Source: Acidobacteriota bacterium (GTDB lineage: Bacteria; Acidobacteriota; Terriglobia; Terriglobales; Acidobacteriaceae). Taken from it: a DNA stretch of 33,134 bases. Shown in pieces: positions 24,388-33,134 of the stretch; position 1 is the first letter of the stretch; the number at the start of each line of letters is the position of its first letter. The notes beneath the pieces were generated by a model. The model saw only the letters and a program-made list of their open reading frames with translations. It had not been told where the DNA came from and did not search any database. The translations under genes were made by a program, and so were the position numbers. Where the stretch lies: NCBI GenBank assembly GCA_021792795.1, contig JAJYUB010000036.1, forward strand, positions 1-33,134, written 5' to 3'.

Positions 24388-24789
24388 ATGCAATCGTATT
24401 CGCAGGATTTGCGTGATCGTGTGCTTCGAGCGCTGGCCCGTGGGGATCGCCCCTCGGCGGTGGCGCGGCGCTTTGAGGTCAGCCGCTTCTACGTTTATCA
24501 AGTGCGGGACCGGGAGCGCGAGACCGGCGTGCGGAGCAGTTTTCCGATCGGAGGTCATCGCCGGTCTCGGCTGGAGGAAGCGGAAACGGTTTTGCGCCGC
24601 TGGATCGCAGCCGAGCCGGGGCTGACGCTGGAGGAGTTGCGCGAGCGCTTGGCGTTGCAGGGAATTGCGACCAAAATTGGCGCTCTTTGGCACCAGTTGA
24701 ACAAGTGGAACCTGACCTTCAAAAAAAACGCTGCACGCCAGCGAGCAAGAGCGCGAGGACGTGCAGGCGGCGCGGCGCGCATGGAGTGA
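24388..24789 (+). CDS. IS630 transposase, N-terminal frame
   Basis: 133 residues. MQSYSQDLRDRVLRALARGD and AVARRFEVSRFYVYQV form the first helix-turn-helix, and LTLEELRERLALQG with TKIGALWHQLNKWNLTF the second; together they bind the terminal repeats. The frame reaches an A8 run at 24721-24728 and then continues for 20 codons that look unnatural (Arg/Ala-rich). Moving by one base at the run gives TFKKTLHASEQERED, the normal continuation in this family. So the full transposase requires a +1-type shift or polymerase slippage at the run. Confidence 0.88.
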   Translation: MQSYSQDLRDRVLRALARGDRPSAVARRFEVSRFYVYQVRDRERETGVRSSFPIGGHRRSRLEEAETVLRRWIAAEPGLTLEELRERLALQGIATKIGALWHQLNKWNLTFKKNAARQRARARGRAGGAARME

Positions 24790-25327
24790 AGCGCAACCGG
24801 CGATGGACGTCGAGAAGCTTGTATTTATTGACGAGACCTGGGCCACGACCAACATGACGCGAAGCCATGGCCGTGCCCCCAGAGGCACTCGCTGCATCGG
24901 TTCGGCGCCCCTCGGCAACTGGCAAACGACGACCTTTGTCGCCGGCCTGCGCCGCCAGGAACTGACCGCTCCCATGGTGGTGGACGGACCCATGGACGGT
25001 GAGTTGTTCGTGGCTTGGGTGGAGCAGTTCCTGTGCCCCACGCTGCACACAGGCGACATCGTTGTCCTCGACAATCTCAGCAGCCATAAAGTGGATGGAG
25101 TTCAGCAAGCCATCGCCCTGGCCGGTGCCACCGTGCTCTATCTGCCGCCCTATTCGCCCGATCTGAACCCCATCGAAAAACTCTTTTCCAAACTCAAGAC
25201 ACTGCTCCGAAAAGCGGCCAAGCGGTCCACCGAAGAACTCTGGCAAGAGATCGGCCAACTGCTCCTTACGGTCTCGCCAAGCGAGTGCGTCAACTACTTC
25301 GCTTCTTCTGGATATGTCAGTACTTAA
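24761..25327 (+). CDS. IS630 transposase, DDE catalytic frame
   Basis: Contains the catalytic triad: Asp in LVFIDETWATTNM, Asp in DIVVLDNLSSHKVDG and Glu in YLPPYSPDLNPIEKLFSKLK, which defines the DDE domain that cuts and joins the element ends. The biologically meaningful frame begins at the A8 run (about 24728) as a continuation of the upstream frame. An independent start at 24761 has no convincing ribosome site. The protein ends inside the IS, 13 bases before its right end. Confidence 0.9.
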   Translation: MQAARRAWSEAQPAMDVEKLVFIDETWATTNMTRSHGRAPRGTRCIGSAPLGNWQTTTFVAGLRRQELTAPMVVDGPMDGELFVAWVEQFLCPTLHTGDIVVLDNLSSHKVDGVQQAIALAGATVLYLPPYSPDLNPIEKLFSKLKTLLRKAAKRSTEELWQEIGQLLLTVSPSECVNYFASSGYVST

Positions 25328-25409
25328 ATTAAATACGCTCTAGCTGAACTAGATGTTTGGTCCCGGAGATAGATGGTGCATGCTTTACTGAACGCCAGAA
25401 GGAGGCACT

Positions 25410-25454
25410 ATGGGACAGGTTCTACACGGGTGCGCCCGCACGACAGAGGCAGTC
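25410..25454 (+). pseudogene. first 15 codons of an IS481-type transposase
   Basis: The reading MGQVLHGCARTTEAV, with GGAGG at 25401-25405, is the conserved start of a group of IS481-family transposases as I remember them. After Val the sequence is unrelated and the frame soon stops, so only the first codons and the ribosome site survive. The remnant directly adjoins the 3' end of the TlpA-like gene, suggesting that an insertion or deletion there removed DNA beyond the sulfur operon. The rest of 25343-25458 holds nothing recognisable. Confidence 0.55.
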
Positions 25455-25458
25455 CCCT

Positions 25459-26004
25459 TCAGTGTGGTTGTAGAAGATTTCGCACCTCGTTCTGCATGGT
25501 GTTGAGGTCGGTGGCTCCCTGATGCTCAAAGCGTACTGTTCCCTTCACATCGATTAGAAAGGTGACGGGAAGGCCGAGAATGCCGCCATACAATTCTCCG
25601 AGTTTCTCGTCTCCCATCACCACCGGATAATTCAATCCGTATTTCCGGTATGCGATGCGTACTGGTTGTGGATCATCGTCCATGGAAACTCCGATGACTT
25701 GCAACCCTTGCCCGCCGTACTCTCGCCGCCACGCAACAAAGCGCGGCATCTCGGCAAGACAAGGACCGCGCCACGTTGCCCAAAAGTTGAGCAGGACAAC
25801 TTTACCGTGATACTTCGCCAGGTGGATTTGTCGATGATCGAGGTCCGTCAGTGAGAAGTCTGGCGCGCGACGGTTTACAAGGGAGGATGGAGTGCCCGTT
25901 CCTGCGTAAAGACGAGTCCTCAAACCGAGCAGAAGCAGCGCCACCATCATCCAGAGGACGATACGTTTTGCATTCAAGAGAGGATTGCCACTCAGCAGCA
26001 GCAT
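25459..26004 (-). CDS. TlpA/ResA-like thioredoxin-fold protein with altered active site
   Basis: 181 residues. An N-terminal membrane anchor or signal (KRIVLWMMVALLLLGL), then a periplasmic AhpC/TSA-TlpA fold: RAPDFSLTDLDHRQIHLAKY, VVLLNFWATWRGPCLAEMP, QVIGVSMDDDP and the cis-Pro loop GLPVTFLID. The family active site is WCxPC; here it reads WRGPC, so Arg79 replaces the first cysteine while Cys82 remains. The codon is CGC (bases 25768-25770 on the minus strand), one change from TGC. The protein cannot do normal dithiol exchange; a monothiol or binding role, or loss of function, is possible. Last gene of the sulfur operon, 3 bp after the rhodanese stop. Confidence 0.85.
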   Translation of the reverse strand: MLLLSGNPLLNAKRIVLWMMVALLLLGLRTRLYAGTGTPSSLVNRRAPDFSLTDLDHRQIHLAKYHGKVVLLNFWATWRGPCLAEMPRFVAWRREYGGQGLQVIGVSMDDDPQPVRIAYRKYGLNYPVVMGDEKLGELYGGILGLPVTFLIDVKGTVRFEHQGATDLNTMQNEVRNLLQPH

Positions 26005-26007
26005 CGT

Positions 26008-26520
26008 TTATCGTCCCTGGGCAACCGGATACCCCTTGTTGACCCAATCGACGCCAAAGTTATCCGCGAGGTAGAGCGCCTTGACATGGGTGAAACCGAG
26101 AGCACGCAACTGCTGGTAGGCGGGCCGAATGTTCGGGCACTTATTCCACGGACAGCATCCGCAATAAATAACAAGAAACGTATCCCGCTGCAATACCTTC
26201 ACTCGATCTCGAAGCGCTTGCAGCCCTGCCTCTTGCCCCGCCGCTCCGGCGTACTCCGATCCGGGAATATGCGCCTCCGAGTACAGGACGTGCGAGCCAA
26301 CCTGCAGGATCAAGGGTTTCTCTCCGTTGGAAGAGCGCAGGATTTGCACGAGTTCCTTCGGCTGCAATAACTCCGCTGCGGGGATCTCCGTATCTGCTAA
26401 AGACGTCGGCGCAGCGTGTACTGCTGATCCCGATGTCTGGGCGTGTGTGGTCGCACAAAGGGCGGCGAGCAGTGTTATCGCGCATATCACTATGCCAGAC
26501 TGGAGAGAATAGTTTTTCAT
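26008..26520 (-). CDS. secreted rhodanese-like sulfurtransferase
   Basis: 170 residues. Signal peptide SGIVICAITLLAALCATTHA with cleavage near residue 27. The rhodanese domain has LILQVGSHVLYSEAHIPGSE and the active-site loop YCGCCPWNKCPN, with Cys120 in the nucleophile position and further cysteines 122, 123 and 128. This Cys-rich loop is found in a subgroup of periplasmic rhodaneses. It would move sulfane sulfur between thiols in the periplasm. The ATG at 26520 follows GAGGTG; upstream in-frame codons are unlikely. It belongs to a minus-strand operon, 99 bp after the DsrE-like gene. Confidence 0.85.
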   Translation of the reverse strand: MKNYSLQSGIVICAITLLAALCATTHAQTSGSAVHAAPTSLADTEIPAAELLQPKELVQILRSSNGEKPLILQVGSHVLYSEAHIPGSEYAGAAGQEAGLQALRDRVKVLQRDTFLVIYCGCCPWNKCPNIRPAYQQLRALGFTHVKALYLADNFGVDWVNKGYPVAQGR

Positions 26521-26619
26521 GACGAACACCTCATTTTCTGGATCGAAATGCAGAGAATCCCCTTGTCGTGTGCCGATGCCGAGCAAGACAGAAGTCACAG
26601 TCCACCGCCATCAAGAACT

Positions 26620-26970
26620 TCAGAAGACTATGACTTGATCGGCTTCCTGTGTCCAGCCGGTCAACTCGCTCATGGTGCTTCGGTGAGCGCCTTCCAAGAT
26701 CGCTTCGGGTTTGATGCCCCGCGCATCCATGCAGCTCCCGCACACACCAATCGCGCAGTGCTTCAACGCAAGGATTTTCAGCATTCTCTCAATGTTGTAA
26801 TATCCGTTCGGCGTCGTCTGCCCCGCAATTCCACATGCCGCGGCATCTCCGATCAAAAATATCTTAACGGTATTTTTCTCGTCTTTGGCCAGTTCATTCG
26901 CCAGCCGAAGGCCGTTGTAACTGCGTTCGGTACCGTACGGTGGATCGTTCAGAATCAGTAGATACTTCAT
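26620..26970 (-). CDS. DsrE/DsrF-like sulfur carrier protein
   Basis: 116 residues with the DsrE fold: MKYLLILNDPPYGTERSYNG, LRLANELAKDEKNTVKIFLI, GDAAACGIAG and the conserved cysteine loop IGVCGSCMDARGI (Cys77, Cys80). Such small cytoplasmic proteins carry persulfide sulfur between desulfurases, rhodaneses and acceptors. It lies 27 bp downstream of the cysteine desulfurase gene, which could load it. Complete and well conserved. Confidence 0.88.
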   Translation of the reverse strand: MKYLLILNDPPYGTERSYNGLRLANELAKDEKNTVKIFLIGDAAACGIAGQTTPNGYYNIERMLKILALKHCAIGVCGSCMDARGIKPEAILEGAHRSTMSELTGWTQEADQVIVF

Positions 26971-26997
26971 GGATTTCCTTTCGCATGCTTGAGGTTG

Positions 26998-28113
26998 TTA
27001 GCCGAGAATCTCTTTCAGTTGCCGCACAACGACTTCGATTTCCTCCTCGGTCGTCGTGCGACCCAGGCTGAACCGAATCGCGCCCATGCCAGTCTGCGCG
27101 GAAACTCGCATTGCCTTCAGAACGGGGGATAGCTCGATCGAACCGGCGTGACAGGCCGACCCCGTTGAGGCAGCCACCCCATCCAAGGCGTGCAGAATCT
27201 CCGTCCCAACCTTGCCGGGAAAACTGACATTCAGAGTGTTCGGCAAACGGTCCGCCGGATGCCCGTTGAGAACTACGCGGTCGTCGAACTCCTCGGTCAA
27301 TCGGCGCCAAAACATGTCTCTCAGTTCCTGGATTGACTGCCTGTCGATCCAGGATTCGGCCAGTTCACAAGCAGCGCCGAGGCCCACGTCAAGCAGAACG
27401 TTCTCCGTACCCGCACGGCGGCCTGCTTCATGCCCAGCGCCATGGATCAGCGGTTCGAGTTGAATTCCAGCGCGAATATACAGCGCGCCAACGCCTTTCG
27501 GACCGTAGAGTTTGTGTCCAGCTACGGACAAGAGATCGACACCCAGATATCCTACCTTTATTGGGATCTTTCCGACAGACTGGGCGGCATCGGTATGGAA
27601 CACGATTCCGTGCTCGCGAGCAATATGGCTGATCTCCGCAATGGGTTGAATGGTGCCCACCTCGTTATTGGCGTGCATTACGGAAATCAGGACCGTGGTC
27701 GGTGTCACCGCGCGCCGCACATCTTCCGGGTCAACACGTCCGAAGGTGTCCACTGGCAGGAAGGTAACCGTCGCCCCGAGCCGTTCCAGAAAGCGGCAGG
27801 GGTTGATGACCGCAGGGTGCTCGATCTGCGTTGTGATGATGTGGAGGTGCGCAGTTTGCCGGGCGAAGAAGACTCCTTTCAATGCGTGATTGTTCGCTTC
27901 GCTACCTCCGCTGGTGAAGACAATCTCTCTGGCGTCGCAGCCCAAAAGGTGGGCGACTTGTGCCCGCGCCTTCCCAACAGCCTCTCGCGCGGGTCTCCCT
28001 GCCCAGTGATCGCTCGATGGATTCCCAAACGGACTATCCAGCACCGTTCGCATCGCAGCGGCAACCTCGGGCGCTACCGGCGTGCTCGCATTGAAGTCAA
28101 GGTAGATTTGCAT
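26998..28113 (-). CDS. cysteine desulfurase (NifS/IscS family)
   Basis: A 371-residue PLP enzyme releasing sulfur from cysteine as an enzyme-bound persulfide. Visible: start MQIYLDFNASTPVAPEV, FTSGGSEANNHALKG, His99 in QIEHPAV, HTDAAQSVGKIP (Asp175), Schiff-base Lys201 in SVAGHKLYGPKG, and the mobile loop with catalytic Cys321 in ASTGSACHAG. The ATG at 28113 matches the family start; a TTG seven codons earlier is possible. It is placed between the flavoprotein and the DsrE-like gene, 26-27 bp from each. No Fe-S scaffold gene is nearby, so a role in sulfane-sulfur supply within this operon is more likely than general Fe-S assembly. Confidence 0.93.
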   Translation of the reverse strand: MQIYLDFNASTPVAPEVAAAMRTVLDSPFGNPSSDHWAGRPAREAVGKARAQVAHLLGCDAREIVFTSGGSEANNHALKGVFFARQTAHLHIITTQIEHPAVINPCRFLERLGATVTFLPVDTFGRVDPEDVRRAVTPTTVLISVMHANNEVGTIQPIAEISHIAREHGIVFHTDAAQSVGKIPIKVGYLGVDLLSVAGHKLYGPKGVGALYIRAGIQLEPLIHGAGHEAGRRAGTENVLLDVGLGAACELAESWIDRQSIQELRDMFWRRLTEEFDDRVVLNGHPADRLPNTLNVSFPGKVGTEILHALDGVAASTGSACHAGSIELSPVLKAMRVSAQTGMGAIRFSLGRTTTEEEIEVVVRQLKEILG

Positions 28114-28139
28114 ACTGTTTCTCGCATTTCGCAACCGGA

Positions 28140-29354
28140 TTACCAGCCAAAATGAACCGACGGCAAATCATGCCGGACCTTGGCCAGGTAGTACCGCTCA
28201 AAAGCAATCTTCATGTACCTTGCCCACTTTGCGCGTTTTGTAACGATCTTGTTGCGCGGAGGTAGAAACGGATCTGCCGACATATAAAATGCAGTGTCGC
28301 CCGCATCCGCAATACAGGTCATTGGCAATGTCAGACCATCCAACATTTTGCCGCCGGAGAACTCCGCCGCAACATTGCGCGCGGCAATCCGGGCCATCGA
28401 TTCGCTCAGGTGCCCCGTTTTCGGAACTGCGACCGGCACCGGGGTCACGCCGGGCGGAGCGATAGCAACCGCTACGCCGGCGGCGTAGATGTTTCCAAAT
28501 TTTGCGCTGGACAAGTGCGGCGTTACGGGAATAAATCCCTTCGCATTGCCCAGGCCCTCGACCGCGCGGACGAATGGGCTGCCGAGAAACGCCGGAATTA
28601 CCAGCGAGAAATCGAATGGCAGTTCTGTGTTGTCTGCCAAGGTGAGGCTGCCCGGTCGTGCCTCGACAATTTTGGCATTTACCGTACTGTCGATGTGGCG
28701 TTCCGCGAACTCGTCCTGAATCATTCGAGGAGATGCGCCAATGCCCCCAACGCCGAAGTGACCTAGATACGGCTCGGGCGTCACGAAGGCAAGCGAAAAG
28801 CGATGGCGCTTCCTTGCCCGTTTCAGCACCGTATCGATCATCATCACCAACTCGTATGCCGGGCCGATGCAACTTGCTCCCGCCACCGCGCCGATCACGA
28901 TGCGTCCCGAATCCGACGCCAGCACTTTCGCCAGGGCATTCCGTGACTGAACCGCTTCATCGATCGTAAAGGTGGAATGGATGTGCCCATACTTCGGATC
29001 AAGACCGGGGACTGCTGCATAATCCAGCTCCGCACCTGGACAGAGAATGAGGGCGTCGTATGGAAATTTCGCCGAAGACGTTCGGACCTCTCCCCGTTGA
29101 GGGTCGAGTTCCTTCACTTCATCCTGCACAAAACGTATCCGCCGACGTTGGAGCGGCCCATCCAGGGGGACCTGTAGCTGCGATGGATCGCGCCAACCCA
29201 TGATAACCCACAGCAGCGAAGGCATGAACGTAAATGCCGCATCCCGCGAGATCACCGTGATCTCGGCATCTCGCGGAAGCCTCCTACGAAGCTCATAGGC
29301 TGCGTTGATTCCACCAAATGACCCGCCAACCACCACGACTCTCTTTTTGTCCAT
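28140..29354 (-). CDS. sulfide:quinone oxidoreductase-like flavoprotein
   Basis: 404 residues. FAD-binding start KRVVVVGGSFGGINAAYELR, second nucleotide site around IVIGAVAGASCIGPAYELV, and the closing FAD motif FGNIYAAGVAVAI. Cysteines 105, 162 and 347 (MTCIADAGD) are candidates for the redox-active pair of the SQR/flavocytochrome c family. The C-terminal ARYMKIAFERYYLAKV is an amphipathic helix suited to the membrane surface. It probably oxidises sulfide and passes electrons to quinone, making persulfide for its neighbours. An NDH-2-like role is an alternative. The ATG at 29354 follows AAGGCGGG; a GTG two codons earlier is possible. Confidence 0.82.
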   Translation of the reverse strand: MDKKRVVVVGGSFGGINAAYELRRRLPRDAEITVISRDAAFTFMPSLLWVIMGWRDPSQLQVPLDGPLQRRRIRFVQDEVKELDPQRGEVRTSSAKFPYDALILCPGAELDYAAVPGLDPKYGHIHSTFTIDEAVQSRNALAKVLASDSGRIVIGAVAGASCIGPAYELVMMIDTVLKRARKRHRFSLAFVTPEPYLGHFGVGGIGASPRMIQDEFAERHIDSTVNAKIVEARPGSLTLADNTELPFDFSLVIPAFLGSPFVRAVEGLGNAKGFIPVTPHLSSAKFGNIYAAGVAVAIAPPGVTPVPVAVPKTGHLSESMARIAARNVAAEFSGGKMLDGLTLPMTCIADAGDTAFYMSADPFLPPRNKIVTKRAKWARYMKIAFERYYLAKVRHDLPSVHFGW

Positions 29355-29396
29355 GCTCACCCGCCTTACCTCATTGACTCGGATCTTTCCAATGCT

Positions 29397-30077
29397 TCAA
29401 GGATGGATCGCGCGTTCCACGGGCAGCCCTCGCGCTTTCCAGTCCGGGAAACCACCTTCGAAACGGAGCGCGTTAAAACCCTTGGCTCGCAGGATGGCGA
29501 CAGCCTCGTCGGCAAGAACGCAATAGGGGCCGCGGCAGTACGCCACGATGGTCTTCTTTTTAGGAATTTCCTTCAATCGTGTTTCCAGTTCATTCACCGG
29601 GATTGACCGCGCGCTCCGGATGTGCCCCGCGCTGTATTCCTGCTCTGGGCGAACATCGAGTACAACTACGCTTCCTGCTTGGATCTGTCTCAGCAGATCC
29701 TCACAGGTGGTTGCTTCCAGGTCCTTGCGGTCTTTGAAGAAGTCCTCGACAATACGCTCGATTTCAGCAAGCTGCATCGCGCCAACCTCGCGCAGGTTCA
29801 GCCACAATCGCAGCACCTGCTCATCGCTCAAACGATACCAGGCATAGGTTCCTTGGCGGCGCACGTCTACAAGACGCGCGTTCCGAAGCACCTGGAGATG
29901 CTGCGAAGCATTGGCGATCGACATGCCAGTTTCCGCAGCAAGCTCCTCGACGGTTCTCTCGCTCTGGGCGAGAAGCTCGATAAGCTCTAGCCGACGGCCA
30001 CTCGAAAGCGCTTTACCGATGCGCGCGAATTCCTCGAACAGCTCAGTCTTGAATACTCGCTTGGTTAAGTTCTTCAT
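29397..30077 (-). CDS. ArsR-family regulator fused to a rhodanese domain
   Basis: 226 residues. The winged helix covers about residues 8-95, with RTVEELAAETGMSIANASQH as helix-turn-helix and RQGTYAWYRLSD as wing. The rhodanese domain (about 125-220) has VVVLDVRPEQEYSAGHI and the loop AYCRGPYC with catalytic Cys181 and Cys186, then EGGFPDWKARGLPV. Regulators of this fused type sense reactive sulfur. It heads the sulfur operon, 42 bp before the flavoprotein gene. The ATG at 30077 is chosen because the operator at 30084-30108 would otherwise lie inside the gene; the mRNA then has almost no leader. Confidence 0.9.
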   Translation of the reverse strand: MKNLTKRVFKTELFEEFARIGKALSSGRRLELIELLAQSERTVEELAAETGMSIANASQHLQVLRNARLVDVRRQGTYAWYRLSDEQVLRLWLNLREVGAMQLAEIERIVEDFFKDRKDLEATTCEDLLRQIQAGSVVVLDVRPEQEYSAGHIRSARSIPVNELETRLKEIPKKKTIVAYCRGPYCVLADEAVAILRAKGFNALRFEGGFPDWKARGLPVERAIHP

Positions 30078-30083
30078 GCCAAC

Positions 30084-30108
30084 ATATTCAATCATATACT
30101 TGAATATC
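30084..30108 (-). promoter_or_regulatory. ArsR-type operator upstream of the arsR-rhodanese operon
   Basis: Perfect inverted repeat ATATTCAA (30084-30091 and, as TTGAATAT, 30100-30107) with an 8-bp spacer. On the minus strand it reads GATATTCAAGTAT, one variable base, TGATTGA, then 10 bases to the ATG. The size and AT-rich symmetry are typical of ArsR/SmtB operators. A near-identical copy lies at 32433-32453. It most likely gives autorepression that is released when the regulator is modified by sulfur. Confidence 0.8.
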
Positions 30109-30144
30109 ACTCAAAAGTTTGTCGGAACTGGTTTGTTCCCCGCA

Positions 30145-30582
30145 CTAAAAGTTTTGTTTTAACCAGCGGATGACTGCGTATTTCGATTGTGGATGTTTTA
30201 TCTTCGTCCATCCCGGACCGCTTTCGGCAAAACTGCGCACCGGAATTTGCTGAATCTCGACTTGACCGGGGCGATACCCAGCGTCCTTCTCGATACGTTG
30301 AATTTGGTCGCTTGTCACAGGCGGAGTGCCCGGAGGAAAATCCAGAATTATGGAGGACTGCCGCAGATTGAACTGCGCGCTCTCCAAAGTCGGCAGCGAG
30401 TAGAGCCTCACCAGAATATTGAAGAACCCACGAGGAGAAAATACCCCATTCAGATGCGCTGTGACACGTTGCCACGATGCATCCTGCGAAGATTTTGATG
30501 TTTGAGAGTCGGCGACACACGACACGCTGAGGAGCAGCAAGAGTGCCAAAACGCGATATAAACTCCCTGTACAGGCTGTCAT
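30145..30582 (-). CDS. secreted protein with a possible heavy-metal-associated-like fold
   Basis: 145 residues. Signal peptide YRVLALLLLLSVSCVADS; the mature part contains GVFSPRGFFNILVRLYSLPT, SAQFNLRQSSIILDFPPGTP and VTSDQIQRIEKDAGYRPGQV. The last pieces have the strand-helix pattern of HMA-like domains, but no CxxC metal site is present. Function is unknown. The start overlaps the stop of the barrel protein gene by four bases (ATGA), so they are co-translated. It ends 68 bp before the start of the arsR-rhodanese gene on the same strand. Confidence 0.6.
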   Translation of the reverse strand: MTACTGSLYRVLALLLLLSVSCVADSQTSKSSQDASWQRVTAHLNGVFSPRGFFNILVRLYSLPTLESAQFNLRQSSIILDFPPGTPPVTSDQIQRIEKDAGYRPGQVEIQQIPVRSFAESGPGWTKIKHPQSKYAVIRWLKQNF

Positions 30583-31511
30583 TGTTTGTGCCTTTTGAAA
30601 CCGGAGAGATAGTATTCGGTAAAAAATAACAGTTGGCGCTTTTCCCGAACATCGTTGGGACTATTTAAATCTTGAACAACCGGGAGTTGTATGCCCGCGC
30701 CGATTTCGTAATGCAAGGTTGCCCATTCAAGGACGGCATCCTGATAGAAACTTAAACCGCCAGAGCCGGGCGAAACATGGCCGTCGATGTGGGAAAGCGA
30801 ATCGTGTTGATAATTGTCTTCGATCGATAGCCATAGTTCCCCTTTCGGCAAACCGAGATCGGGTAGCGTCAAAGGGTACAACCGTAGCTCCCCCTGTCCG
30901 TCCACGCGGAATTGGTCGCCGGGGCTGATCCCTGTGCTTGTAATTGGATTGTGGCGAAAGGTGCTGTCTGCGGCCAGCCCGTACGCCGGTCCGTTCCAGC
31001 CAAATGCCACGCCTCCATAAGGAGCAACACTGCCGGAGCCGGTTTGTATCGGCGCTGGCAAGAGTCCATTGGAGTCGCGCAGTGTATTGCTGCCGCTGGG
31101 TAGATACAGACCCGCCACCGGGGCGAGGCGCAATGTCGATTTTGGCGTATCGCGGCTGAATAACGTATATCGAGCGAAAGCTAGCGTGTCCCCCAGGCCG
31201 CCGGAGCTAACATGACGCGGGCCAGAGGGTGTTTGTGTCTGGATGGAGTTATACATGGGATTCAACGTGGCAAAAAGAGTCCATCGCGCATTCAAGCCAT
31301 AAGCAACGTCGAATGGGAACTGAAAATTAGTGAGATCCTGACCGCTAAAGATAGGGTCCCAATTTAAACGAGTCAGTGTTTGGTTCTCAGCGACTGGCAG
31401 CGCAGTAATAAACGTAGCAGGCGAGGCCAAGGCAAAGCGTGCTGCGTAAAATGCAAAAACAACAAGCAGAAATCTGCCACAAGATTTTAATTTAGACAAC
31501 CACAATTGCAT
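30579..31511 (-). CDS. outer-membrane protein of the MetA/phenol-degradation type
   Basis: 310 residues. Signal peptide FLLVVFAFYAARFALA, then a barrel-like pattern of alternating strands: FPFDVAYGLNARWTLFATLN, GGLGDTLAFARYTLF, STLRLAPVAGLYLPSGS, YGGVAFGWNGPAYGLAAD, closing FTEYYLSGFKRHKQ. This resembles the family annotated as putative MetA-pathway of phenol degradation (PF13557), outer-membrane proteins whose substrate is mostly unknown. The ATG follows GGAG by six bases. First gene of a two-gene unit with the small secreted protein. Assignment rests on pattern only. Confidence 0.7.
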   Translation of the reverse strand: MQLWLSKLKSCGRFLLVVFAFYAARFALASPATFITALPVAENQTLTRLNWDPIFSGQDLTNFQFPFDVAYGLNARWTLFATLNPMYNSIQTQTPSGPRHVSSGGLGDTLAFARYTLFSRDTPKSTLRLAPVAGLYLPSGSNTLRDSNGLLPAPIQTGSGSVAPYGGVAFGWNGPAYGLAADSTFRHNPITSTGISPGDQFRVDGQGELRLYPLTLPDLGLPKGELWLSIEDNYQHDSLSHIDGHVSPGSGGLSFYQDAVLEWATLHYEIGAGIQLPVVQDLNSPNDVREKRQLLFFTEYYLSGFKRHKQ

Positions 31512-31576
31512 TCCATGCTCCGATGTAAAGGATGTAAATAGTGTCCATCTGCTCCTGTGGGAGGAAGACAGGAAAC

Positions 31577-31605
31577 TCCATGCGAGTCTGACTATCTCGC
31601 ATGGA
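31577..31605 (-). terminator. hairpin after the secreted unknown gene
   Basis: TCCATGCGAG (31577-31586), 9-nt loop, CTCGCATGGA (31596-31605): a perfect 10-bp stem directly after the stop of the minus-strand gene at 31607. The following minus-strand bases are T/C-rich (TTTCCTGTCTTCCTC) without a pure T-run, so an intrinsic terminator is plausible. Confidence 0.6.
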
Positions 31606-31606
31606 A

Positions 31607-32422
31607 CTATCGCGATTCGTCACATCTGATGATCTGCAAAAGTGCGGCACTTCCAGAAGGAATCTCCACCGGATATCGATTTGACTCAAGTTTTATCGCT
31701 CCGCGAGGGGTTGTATTGCCTGCGGAGATCATTCGTGTTTCGGAAAATCCATAGAGGCCACATGCTCCGGAAGAGAAGATTGCGACCGACTGCAAGGTAG
31801 GGATTCCACCGCATGCAGCAGATGTTCCATCGTTTGATTCTGCTGGCTCTAGCCGAGAAAATATTCCGAAACGATCCCGGATTCCAACAATGTCTTCATC
31901 TGCTGCGTAAACCTTTTTGCCGCCAAGCCACAGATGGTCGCCTCCGACAAGGGTGGTGCCCATGGGTGAACCGGAGTCGAGCGAAGTCGATTCCGCAGTG
32001 GCATCGTATGCCTCGATGGAGTTTGCCATGGCCCGTACGGAGGCGCATATCGGCACAGTCCGGTGTTTATCGACAATCCGGTCGAACTTGATTGTTATCG
32101 TGGATGGCCCGTCTTTCCCTGTGTACGAAACATCGACGACATGCCCTAGCACCAGTGATCCCTTGGCAATGCTTTCGGCAGGCCCATAAAGAACAACCTG
32201 CATTGTTTTTGCAGTAATTTGATTCCCCTGCTTTTCCTTTCTGGCATCGATCGTATGGGCAAAGGAGACAGGGATCGCAGTCCCGTCAGGCGGTGTCGCC
32301 GTTGTCGCTTGCGAGTATGCTGGTCCCACCGAGAGAGGGATAAACACAAAACCGGCCAAACCGCACAGGATTCCCACTCCAGATACCTTGCACCCGCGGC
32401 TTATTAGACTCAAGTTCCTCAT
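31607..32422 (-). CDS. secreted protein of unknown function
   Basis: 271 residues. Signal peptide VGILCGLAGFVFIPLSVGPA with likely cleavage after AYSQA. The mature part has GTAIPVSFAHTIDARKEKQG, a section QITAKTMQVVLYG and a beta-rich VLGHVVDVSYTGKDGPSTIT. This pattern recalls hypothetical secreted proteins of Acidobacteria, but I cannot name a function. Four cysteines occur in the mature part. The ATG at 32422 is preferred over a TTG two codons upstream because the operator at 32433-32453 then lies at the same distance as in front of the arsR-rhodanese gene. No ribosome site, so it may be leaderless. Confidence 0.7.
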   Translation of the reverse strand: MRNLSLISRGCKVSGVGILCGLAGFVFIPLSVGPAYSQATTATPPDGTAIPVSFAHTIDARKEKQGNQITAKTMQVVLYGPAESIAKGSLVLGHVVDVSYTGKDGPSTITIKFDRIVDKHRTVPICASVRAMANSIEAYDATAESTSLDSGSPMGTTLVGGDHLWLGGKKVYAADEDIVGIRDRFGIFSRLEPAESNDGTSAACGGIPTLQSVAIFSSGACGLYGFSETRMISAGNTTPRGAIKLESNRYPVEIPSGSAALLQIIRCDESR

Positions 32423-32432
32423 AATCAACTAG

Positions 32433-32453
32433 TCAATCAGATACTTGAATATC
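32433..32453. promoter_or_regulatory. second copy of the ArsR-type operator
   Basis: On the minus strand it reads GATATTCAAGTAT, C, TGATTGA and then 10 bases to the ATG at 32422. It matches the operator in front of the arsR-rhodanese gene at 20 of 21 positions. It lies in the gap between the secreted unknown gene (minus) and the nucleoside phosphorylase (plus, ATG 29 bp to the right), so it may control both. Confidence 0.78.
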
Positions 32454-32481
32454 TGTCAAGCGGCCTGCTATAAACAGGTCT

Positions 32482-33134
32482 ATGGATGATCGCTTACCAT
32501 TGTTTCGTCACCGTCTTTCTTCGCCCAGTGCATTCAGGCCCGAAGCCCTGGTGCAGGCTGTGCGAGCGGAACGCGCCATGGAATCTGTGCAGGTGCCGCC
32601 CATTTGCGTACTGGACTTCGATGGCGATCTTACCGACTGGCTCGTAAAGACAGGCATCGCCCACCCGTATCCAGCCTGGGCGTGCTTTCACACGACCATG
32701 TATTCCTTTGAGATCGACGGAACGGAATGTGGCATTGTTGCCCGGACCATCGGCGGCCCATATGCGGTGCTCGTTGCCGAACAACTTCATGTCTCCGGCG
32801 CTCGTGTACTCCTCGGCCTCACTTCCGCAGGACGGGTCAGTCCTTCGCTTTCAATGCCCAGTCTTGTGGTCGCAACCAGCGCCATTCGGGATGAAGGAAC
32901 TTCGTACCACTATGTGCCCGCTGAGGATATTGTCACCGCACCTGCAAAGCTGGCGGCCAGCCTCTACAAAGGGCTGCAAGCGCTAGGACTTCCAGTTTCG
33001 CAAGGGCTTGTTTGGACAACGGACGCACCGTATCGCGAAACAGCGGAGGAACTGGCGGAGCATGCAGCCAATGGAGCATTGGCTGTCGAGATGCAAGCGG
33101 CTTCACTGTTTGCTTTCGCACAAGCGCGTCACGC
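32482..33134 (+). CDS. nucleoside phosphorylase family protein, 3' end cut by the window
   Basis: The frame is open from ATG 32482 to the window end, 217 codons. Family signs: PLFRHRLSSPSAFRPEALVQ, GGPYAVLVAEQLHVSGARVL, LLGLTSAGRVSPSLSMPSLV and the substrate-binding region VEMQAASLFAFAQA, equivalent to the E-M-E-A-A motif of purine/uridine phosphorylases. It should cleave a nucleoside with phosphate; the substrate is not readable. The ribosome site is weak (CAGG). It is divergent from the secreted unknown gene, with the ArsR-type operator between. Confidence 0.8.
   Translation, partial: MDDRLPLFRHRLSSPSAFRPEALVQAVRAERAMESVQVPPICVLDFDGDLTDWLVKTGIAHPYPAWACFHTTMYSFEIDGTECGIVARTIGGPYAVLVAEQLHVSGARVLLGLTSAGRVSPSLSMPSLVVATSAIRDEGTSYHYVPAEDIVTAPAKLAASLYKGLQALGLPVSQGLVWTTDAPYRETAEELAEHAANGALAVEMQAASLFAFAQARH

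What the first reader, a model, noticed from the sequence alone, without database searches (positions are those of the whole stretch)
30084..32453. One ArsR-type operator used twice, tying an unknown secreted gene to the sulfur operon
The element GATATTCAAGTAT-n-TGATTGA occurs on the minus strand in front of arsR-rhodanese (30088-30108) and in front of the unknown gene 31607-32422 (32433-32453), 20 of 21 bases equal. Both copies are followed by exactly 10 bases and an ATG. Chance is very unlikely at this length and spacing. It implies that the sulfur-sensing regulator also controls the unknown secreted protein, and perhaps the divergent nucleoside phosphorylase. This defines a small regulon and a first clue to the unknown gene.
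Basis: partly seen in the sequence, partly recalled or inferred. Interest (0 to 1): 0.78.

Follow-up and report, generated by a model that had tools for sequence, protein, structure and literature searches.

The report
ArsR-rhodanese operator at two promoters
A DNA switch that sits in front of a sulfur-related repressor gene in an acidobacterium is present a second time between two neighbouring genes, and close relatives keep that second copy, so one repressor probably controls all of these genes; the switch itself is of an ordinary type.

Summary
The repeat is real. Each is the core of an inverted repeat, TATTCAA-N8-TTGAATA, of ordinary ArsR/SmtB geometry.

It belongs to the ArsR-rhodanese regulator: 19 of 21 such genes from 250 class genomes carry it just upstream, and 10 of 14 exact copies in those genomes lie there.

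The second site is conserved in 5 of 5 genus genomes that have the order phosphorylase-unknown gene (5 of 10 genomes). It goes with that place, not with the unknown gene's family: in two genomes a 39%-identical version stands behind it, and 29 of 29 homologue loci elsewhere lack it.

Best reading: one repressor shuts its own promoter and a divergent promoter pair serving a nucleoside phosphorylase and the unknown-OMP-P145 genes. Binding and a sulfur signal are inferred, not shown; the ArsR domain here has no cysteine, and only two rhodanese cysteines are invariant. Ordinary in kind, modestly interesting as a small conserved regulon.

The parts
30085..30106 (-). site 1: inverted repeat TATTCAAGTATATGATTGAATA, proposed operator of arsR-rhodanese (autoregulation)
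   Evidence: same kind of site in 19 of 21 class homologues
32430..32451 (-). site 2: inverted repeat TATTCAAGTATCTGATTGACTA (one arm base off consensus) between the phosphorylase and the unknown gene
   Evidence: conserved in 5 of 5 genus genomes with this order
30086..30114 (-). proposed arsR promoter TTGAGT-17-TTGAAT, 8 nt before the ATG; overlaps site 1
   Evidence: read by eye, spacing checked; not found by the generic scan
32431..32459 (-). proposed promoter into the unknown gene, TTGACA-17-TTGACT, 8 nt before the ATG; overlaps site 2
   Evidence: by eye; not found by the generic scan
32445..32474 (+). proposed phosphorylase promoter TTGAAT-18-TATAAA, 7 nt before the ATG; its -35 is an arm of site 2
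   Evidence: same geometry in 5 of 5 genus loci; not found by the generic scan
29397..30077 (-). ArsR-rhodanese fusion regulator
   Evidence: HTH_5 48.4 bits (cut-off 22), Rhodanese 68.3 bits (cut-off 22.2)
31607..32422 (-). unknown gene (signal-peptide-like start by eye)
   Evidence: no Pfam or NCBIfam match
30579..31511 (-). gene behind the unknown gene; outer-membrane-protein-like by eye ('OMP')
   Evidence: no Pfam or NCBIfam match; pair kept in relatives
30145..30582 (-). small 145-aa gene ('P145') overlapping the end of OMP
   Evidence: no family match over cut-off; kept with OMP in relatives
32482..33134 (+). divergent nucleoside phosphorylase-like gene, runs off the window
   Evidence: PNP_UDP_1 85.7 bits (cut-off 25.1)
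28140..29354 (-). FAD oxidoreductase, sulfide:quinone reductase-like, behind arsR-rhodanese
   Evidence: Pyr_redox_2 over cut-off; best NCBIfam SQR_III 109.7 bits, below its cut-off of 525
26998..28110 (-). cysteine desulfurase-like
   Evidence: Aminotran_5 251.6 bits
26620..26970 (-). DsrE-like
   Evidence: DsrE 88.5 bits

Best explanation
Both elements are operators of the ArsR-rhodanese repressor. Site 1 overlaps the arsR promoter, so the regulator represses itself and the sulfur genes behind it. Site 2 lies in a divergent promoter region: it fills the spacer of the promoter reading into unknown-OMP-P145 (and possibly on into arsR), and its other arm is the -35 of the phosphorylase promoter, so one bound dimer can block both directions. 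A signal, most likely a sulfane-sulfur species handled by the rhodanese domain, releases the repressor. Shown: the sites, their association with arsR-rhodanese genes across the class, and conservation of site 2 at its place in the genus. Inferred: binding, repression, promoter positions, transcript starts at or near the ATG, and the signal.
For: 19 of 21 arsR-rhodanese genes have the palindrome directly upstream; 18 of these are matched by 0 of 1000 shuffles and one by 8 of 1000. 10 of 14 exact palindromes in 250 class genomes are at arsR-rhodanese; reversed control, 1 place. In the 10 genus genomes, 8 of 8 zero-mismatch places of TATTCAA-N8-TTGANTA are at arsR-rhodanese or between phosphorylase and unknown gene. 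Site 2 is in 5 of 5 genus genomes with that order; window against DX1.bin66: arms 14 of 14 bases equal, spacer 5 of 8, rest 29 of 39. Phosphorylase promoter geometry with its -35 in the operator arm in 5 of 5 genus loci and in G198. A single exact operator lies between phosphorylase and arsR-rhodanese in G206 and G421 C295. The 6 other ArsR-type genes of this genome have no such palindrome nearby, best 11 of 14.
Against: No binding or expression data. Site 2 lacks one arm base in the window and in the four relatives too. Two of 21 arsR-rhodanese genes (L040, L043) lack this palindrome. Most phosphorylases stand apart: of 16 places only 3 (window, G198, G206) have such a site within the fetched flanks, and the own genome's second copy has none. 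Site 1 is degenerate in DBS1-3.bin155 (12 of 14 by the letters). The proposed promoters are not found by the generic scan. The ArsR domain has no cysteine, so sensing is open. Only 10 genus genomes, mostly fragmented MAGs, were seen.
Confidence: 0.72

Rival explanations
1. Site 2 is functionally the operator of the phosphorylase alone. The unknown-OMP-P145 block came to lie between phosphorylase and arsR-rhodanese and is expressed from an unregulated or otherwise regulated promoter.
For: Phosphorylase faces arsR-rhodanese across an inverted repeat in four other loci; the gene behind site 2 is exchanged between close relatives; homologues of the unknown gene elsewhere have no site.
Against: The spacing TTGAC-17-TTGA towards the unknown gene is kept in both promoter lineages; the site fills that spacer, so a bound repressor would block it as well.
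Confidence: 0.15
2. Another ArsR-type protein of the genome binds site 2 (and perhaps site 1 too).
For: Seven HTH_5 places in the genome, six of them other genes; ArsR-type operators share arms, e.g. the TATTCAACC...GGTTGAATA sites, one of them next to another ArsR-type gene.
Against: The loci of the six other genes hold no palindrome better than 11 of 14; site 2 equals site 1 at 20 of 21 bases.
Confidence: 0.08
3. Site 2 is a passive remnant of a duplicated arsR promoter without function.
For: Likeness of the two copies runs on into the gene starts (ATGAAGAACTT and ATGAGGAACTT).
Against: Both arms are unchanged between two lineages that differ in spacer and flanks, and in front of a different version of the gene. 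The one decayed copy found, G421 C309, stands beside a phosphorylase whose frame looks broken (an assembly error is possible). A 54%-identical homologue without site has a similar start (RNTS), so the start likeness needs no duplication.
Confidence: 0.05

Closest known systems
ArsR/SmtB/CadC 12-2-12 operators (core TAxAxTCAAATA-xx-TATTTGAxTxTA; PMC6555750, passages seen; PMC8790569, passages seen)
   Same: TCAA-N8-TTGA centre, inverted repeat overlapping the promoter; 15 and 14 of 20 core bases; a divergent repressor-target layout as quoted for ziaR/ziaA
   Different: Regulator carries a fused rhodanese domain; targets are sulfur genes, a phosphorylase and an unknown module rather than metal pumps
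SqrR/BigR/YgaV sulfide-responsive repressors (PMC9774250 and PMC9774590, passages seen)
   Same: ArsR-type repressor beside sulfide:quinone reductase-like and rhodanese functions; E. coli YgaV is cotranscribed with the rhodanese-like YgaP
   Different: No ATTC-N8-GAAT at either site; no cysteine in the ArsR domain, where SqrR uses Cys41 and Cys107; 45 bits against the BigR cut-off of 155; rhodanese fused, not separate

Membership tests
ArsR/SmtB family regulator | ArsR-type winged helix over the curated cut-off | tested here: met
   HTH_5 48.4 bits, cut-off 22; HTH_metalloreg 79.5 bits, cut-off 55
ArsR/SmtB family regulator | 12-2-12-type inverted repeat overlapping the target promoter | tested here: met
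   15 and 14 of 20 core bases, the two best places in the window; overlap with promoters is by eye
ArsR/SmtB family regulator | binding of the operator, released by the inducer | not testable with these tools
   needs protein and DNA
SqrR/BigR sulfide repressor | two conserved cysteines in the ArsR domain (Cys41, Cys107 in SqrR) | tested here: not met
   0 cysteines in the first 105 residues of the window protein; in 21 homologues Cys is at position 37 in 13 and at position 89 in 12
SqrR/BigR sulfide repressor | ATTC-N8-GAAT recognition site | tested here: not met
   none at either site
SqrR/BigR sulfide repressor | match to the BigR model over its cut-off | tested here: not met
   45 against 155 bits
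Rhodanese domain | domain match and catalytic cysteine | tested here: met
   68.3 bits, cut-off 22.2; Cys181 and Cys186 in 21 of 21 homologues
TrbI/VirB10-like (unknown gene) | TrbI domain match or fold | tested here: inconclusive
   2 of 12 aligned relatives match PF03743, best E 2.2e-4, the window's own protein does not; profile comparison with the window's VirB10-like protein 5%; structure model useless, mean pLDDT 28.6

The most novel reading that the evidence does not exclude
The fused rhodanese domain is the sensor: persulfide loading of Cys181/Cys186 releases an ArsR domain that has no cysteine pair of its own, and the freed regulon couples sulfur handling to nucleoside (possibly methylthioadenosine) salvage through a recurring divergent pairing with a phosphorylase, and in this genus also to an envelope module shared with arsenic operons.
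Probability: 0.25. Interest if true: 0.65.

Novelty: new member of a known kind. Interest (0 to 1): 0.42.

Why it matters
It gives an operator to a fusion regulator found in 21 of 250 class genomes, for which the paper searches made here showed no description (listings, plus passages of six of the listed papers). It predicts the regulator's small regulon from sequence, and it makes a link from a nucleoside phosphorylase and an unknown envelope module to the sulfur genes directly testable.

Tried and rejected
Considered and rejected: (a) chance repeat. (b) Start likeness MKNL/MRNL as proof of duplication: a homologue without site has a similar start. (c) A larger regulon in this genome: of the 7 two-mismatch places, 5 lie inside mechanical open reading frames, 1 upstream of a tRNA-like stretch (by eye), 1 about 156 bp upstream of a sulfide:quinone reductase-like gene; left as chance. 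(d) One origin of the phosphorylase-arsR pairing: the tree needs 5 changes of the label, 4 forced by starred branches, but 72 of 500 shuffled labellings do as well, so neither single nor repeated origin is shown. (e) Structure of the unknown protein: failed, so no fold search was made. (f) Unknown family against the window's VirB10-like protein: 5%. (g) No solved relative of the unknown family at E <= 1.

Dropped or partial: the own genome's second arsR-rhodanese (L056) is cut by its contig end and was left out of the 21. The class search of the unknown gene found 87 of 250 genomes; only the 29 best foreign loci that were fetched were tested for the site. Part of the output was cut and not re-read.

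Full report
OBSERVATION. The 21-base element lies at 30088-30108 and 32433-32453, one base different, with no match in 100 shuffles. It is part of a 22-bp inverted repeat TATTCAA-N8-TTGAATA: 30085-30106 is perfect, 32430-32451 has one arm base changed. Only these two places in the 4.04-Mb genome have at most one mismatch; seven more have two; the reversed control has 2 hits per strand against 9. Against the ArsR/SmtB core quoted in PMC6555750 (passages seen) they are the two best places in the window, 15 and 14 of 20, next 13.

WHOSE OPERATOR. ArsR-rhodanese homologues were found in 21 of 250 class genomes at E <= 1e-30. In 19 of 21 genes (own gene included) the palindrome scores 11-14 of 14 upstream of the start; for 18 of these 0 of 1000 shuffles do as well, for one 8 of 1000. 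The two exceptions, L040 and L043, score 8 and show by eye a different inverted repeat. Searched the other way, the exact palindrome occurs at 14 places in 13 of 250 genomes: 10 at arsR-rhodanese, the other 4 all of the form TATTCAACC...GGTTGAATA; the reversed control occurs at one place. An in-frame ATG follows 3-8 bp behind the second arm in 16 of the 19, so the constant spacing is a trait of this operator. The 6 other ArsR-type genes of the genome have no palindrome above 11 of 14 in their loci.

THE SECOND SITE IN RELATIVES. Five of 10 genus genomes have the order phosphorylase - unknown - OMP: the window's own, G410 (JA1.bin47), G297 (DX1.bin66), G421 (DBS1-3.bin155) and G388 (clean1686); the names are, Acidobacteria MAGs by record title. 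In 5 of 5 the site lies between phosphorylase and unknown gene. DX1.bin66 shows the order through to DsrE with both sites. In G421 the site before arsR is degenerate (12 of 14 by the letters). In G410 and G388 the contigs end before arsR would be reached, and no arsR-rhodanese was found elsewhere in them. In the 10 genomes, 8 of 8 zero-mismatch places of TATTCAA-N8-TTGANTA are at arsR-rhodanese or between phosphorylase and unknown gene; one-mismatch places also occur elsewhere, at about the rate of the reversed control. Window against DX1.bin66: arms 14 of 14 equal, spacer 5 of 8, rest of the stretch 29 of 39.

THE SITE FOLLOWS ITS PLACE. In G421 and G388 the gene behind the site is a 39%-identical version that starts further downstream, next to a phosphorylase region nearly identical to the window's. 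Of 11 places of unknown-gene homologues in the genus, 5 have the site, one (G421 C309, beside a phosphorylase whose frame looks broken) has a 2-mismatch form, and 5 have none (two of those are contig-edge fragments). 0 of 29 class homologue loci have it (fewest mismatches 6 of 18). In G171 and G315 the unknown-OMP-P145 block follows arsM beside arsR, ACR3 and arsC, without site. In G206, G198, G105 and G421 C295 the phosphorylase faces arsR-rhodanese directly; between them lies an exact operator in G206 and G421 C295, 13 of 14 in G198, another inverted repeat in G105. Against a fixed bond: of 16 phosphorylase places only 3 (window, G198, G206) have such a site in the fetched flanks, and the linked phosphorylases are not one clade.

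HOW IT LIKELY WORKS. Read by eye, each promoter holds the operator: arsR TTGAGT-17-TTGAAT and unknown gene TTGACA-17-TTGACT, each 8 nt before the ATG; phosphorylase TTGAAT-18-TATAAA, 7 nt before the ATG, in 5 of 5 genus loci, and TTGAAT-18-TATACC in G198. The generic scan finds none of these. Starts so near the ATG suggest leaderless transcripts, which PMC3160421 (passages seen) puts at 13.3% of genes on average in 3 of 3 Acidobacteria genomes. A dimer on site 2 would block both directions; one on site 1 gives autoregulation. Terminator-like signs are not above chance (9 found, 7.4 expected, 25300-33134), so read-through from the unknown gene into arsR is possible.

SIGNAL. The operon (sulfide:quinone reductase-like, cysteine desulfurase, DsrE, a rhodanese-like protein below the Pfam cut-off, thioredoxin-like) points to sulfur. 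The window's ArsR domain has no cysteine; Cys181 and Cys186 of the rhodanese domain are in 21 of 21 homologues. If sulfur is sensed, the rhodanese domain is the likelier place. This is inference.

UNKNOWN GENE. No Pfam or NCBIfam match; 2 of 12 aligned relatives match TrbI weakly; no solved relative; structure model failed. An envelope role is suggested only by its N-terminus and neighbours, by eye.

VERDICT. A real, conserved, ordinary-type operator used twice; a probable small regulon of arsR-rhodanese, sulfur genes, phosphorylase and, in this genus, the unknown module.

Noticed in passing
L059 (G000:C43:1-3359): The own genome holds a second dsrE-nifS-sqr-arsR-rhodanese run, 92-95% identical in protein, cut off inside arsR by the contig end.
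   Followed up: partly
L113 (G000:C41:7009-7659): A second phosphorylase copy, 84% identical, without the site, between unrelated genes.
   Followed up: partly
L058 5065-10389 and L111 3293-8600: The unknown-OMP-P145 block also sits behind arsM in arsenic operons of two relatives; OMP and P145 are about 78-83% identical to the window's, the unknown gene only 37-38%.
   Followed up: partly
L121 1167-1188 (G000:C7:14766-14787): A two-mismatch palindrome about 156 bp upstream of a sulfide:quinone reductase-like gene; may be chance.
   Followed up: partly
L169 (G421:C309): Phosphorylase in two frames beside a decayed site and an unknown-gene homologue; a lost copy or an assembly error.
   Followed up: partly
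window 1-20751 and 24388-25327: By eye, conjugation-type genes (VirB4, VirB10, VirB11, coupling protein and relaxase-like), an integrase-like gene and a split transposase-like gene precede the sulfur genes, so the block may lie on or beside a mobile element.
   Followed up: no
L178, L180, L183, L189: Four exact palindromes TATTCAACC...GGTTGAATA away from arsR-rhodanese; at L183 one is in front of another ArsR-type gene, probably a separate operator class.
   Followed up: partly
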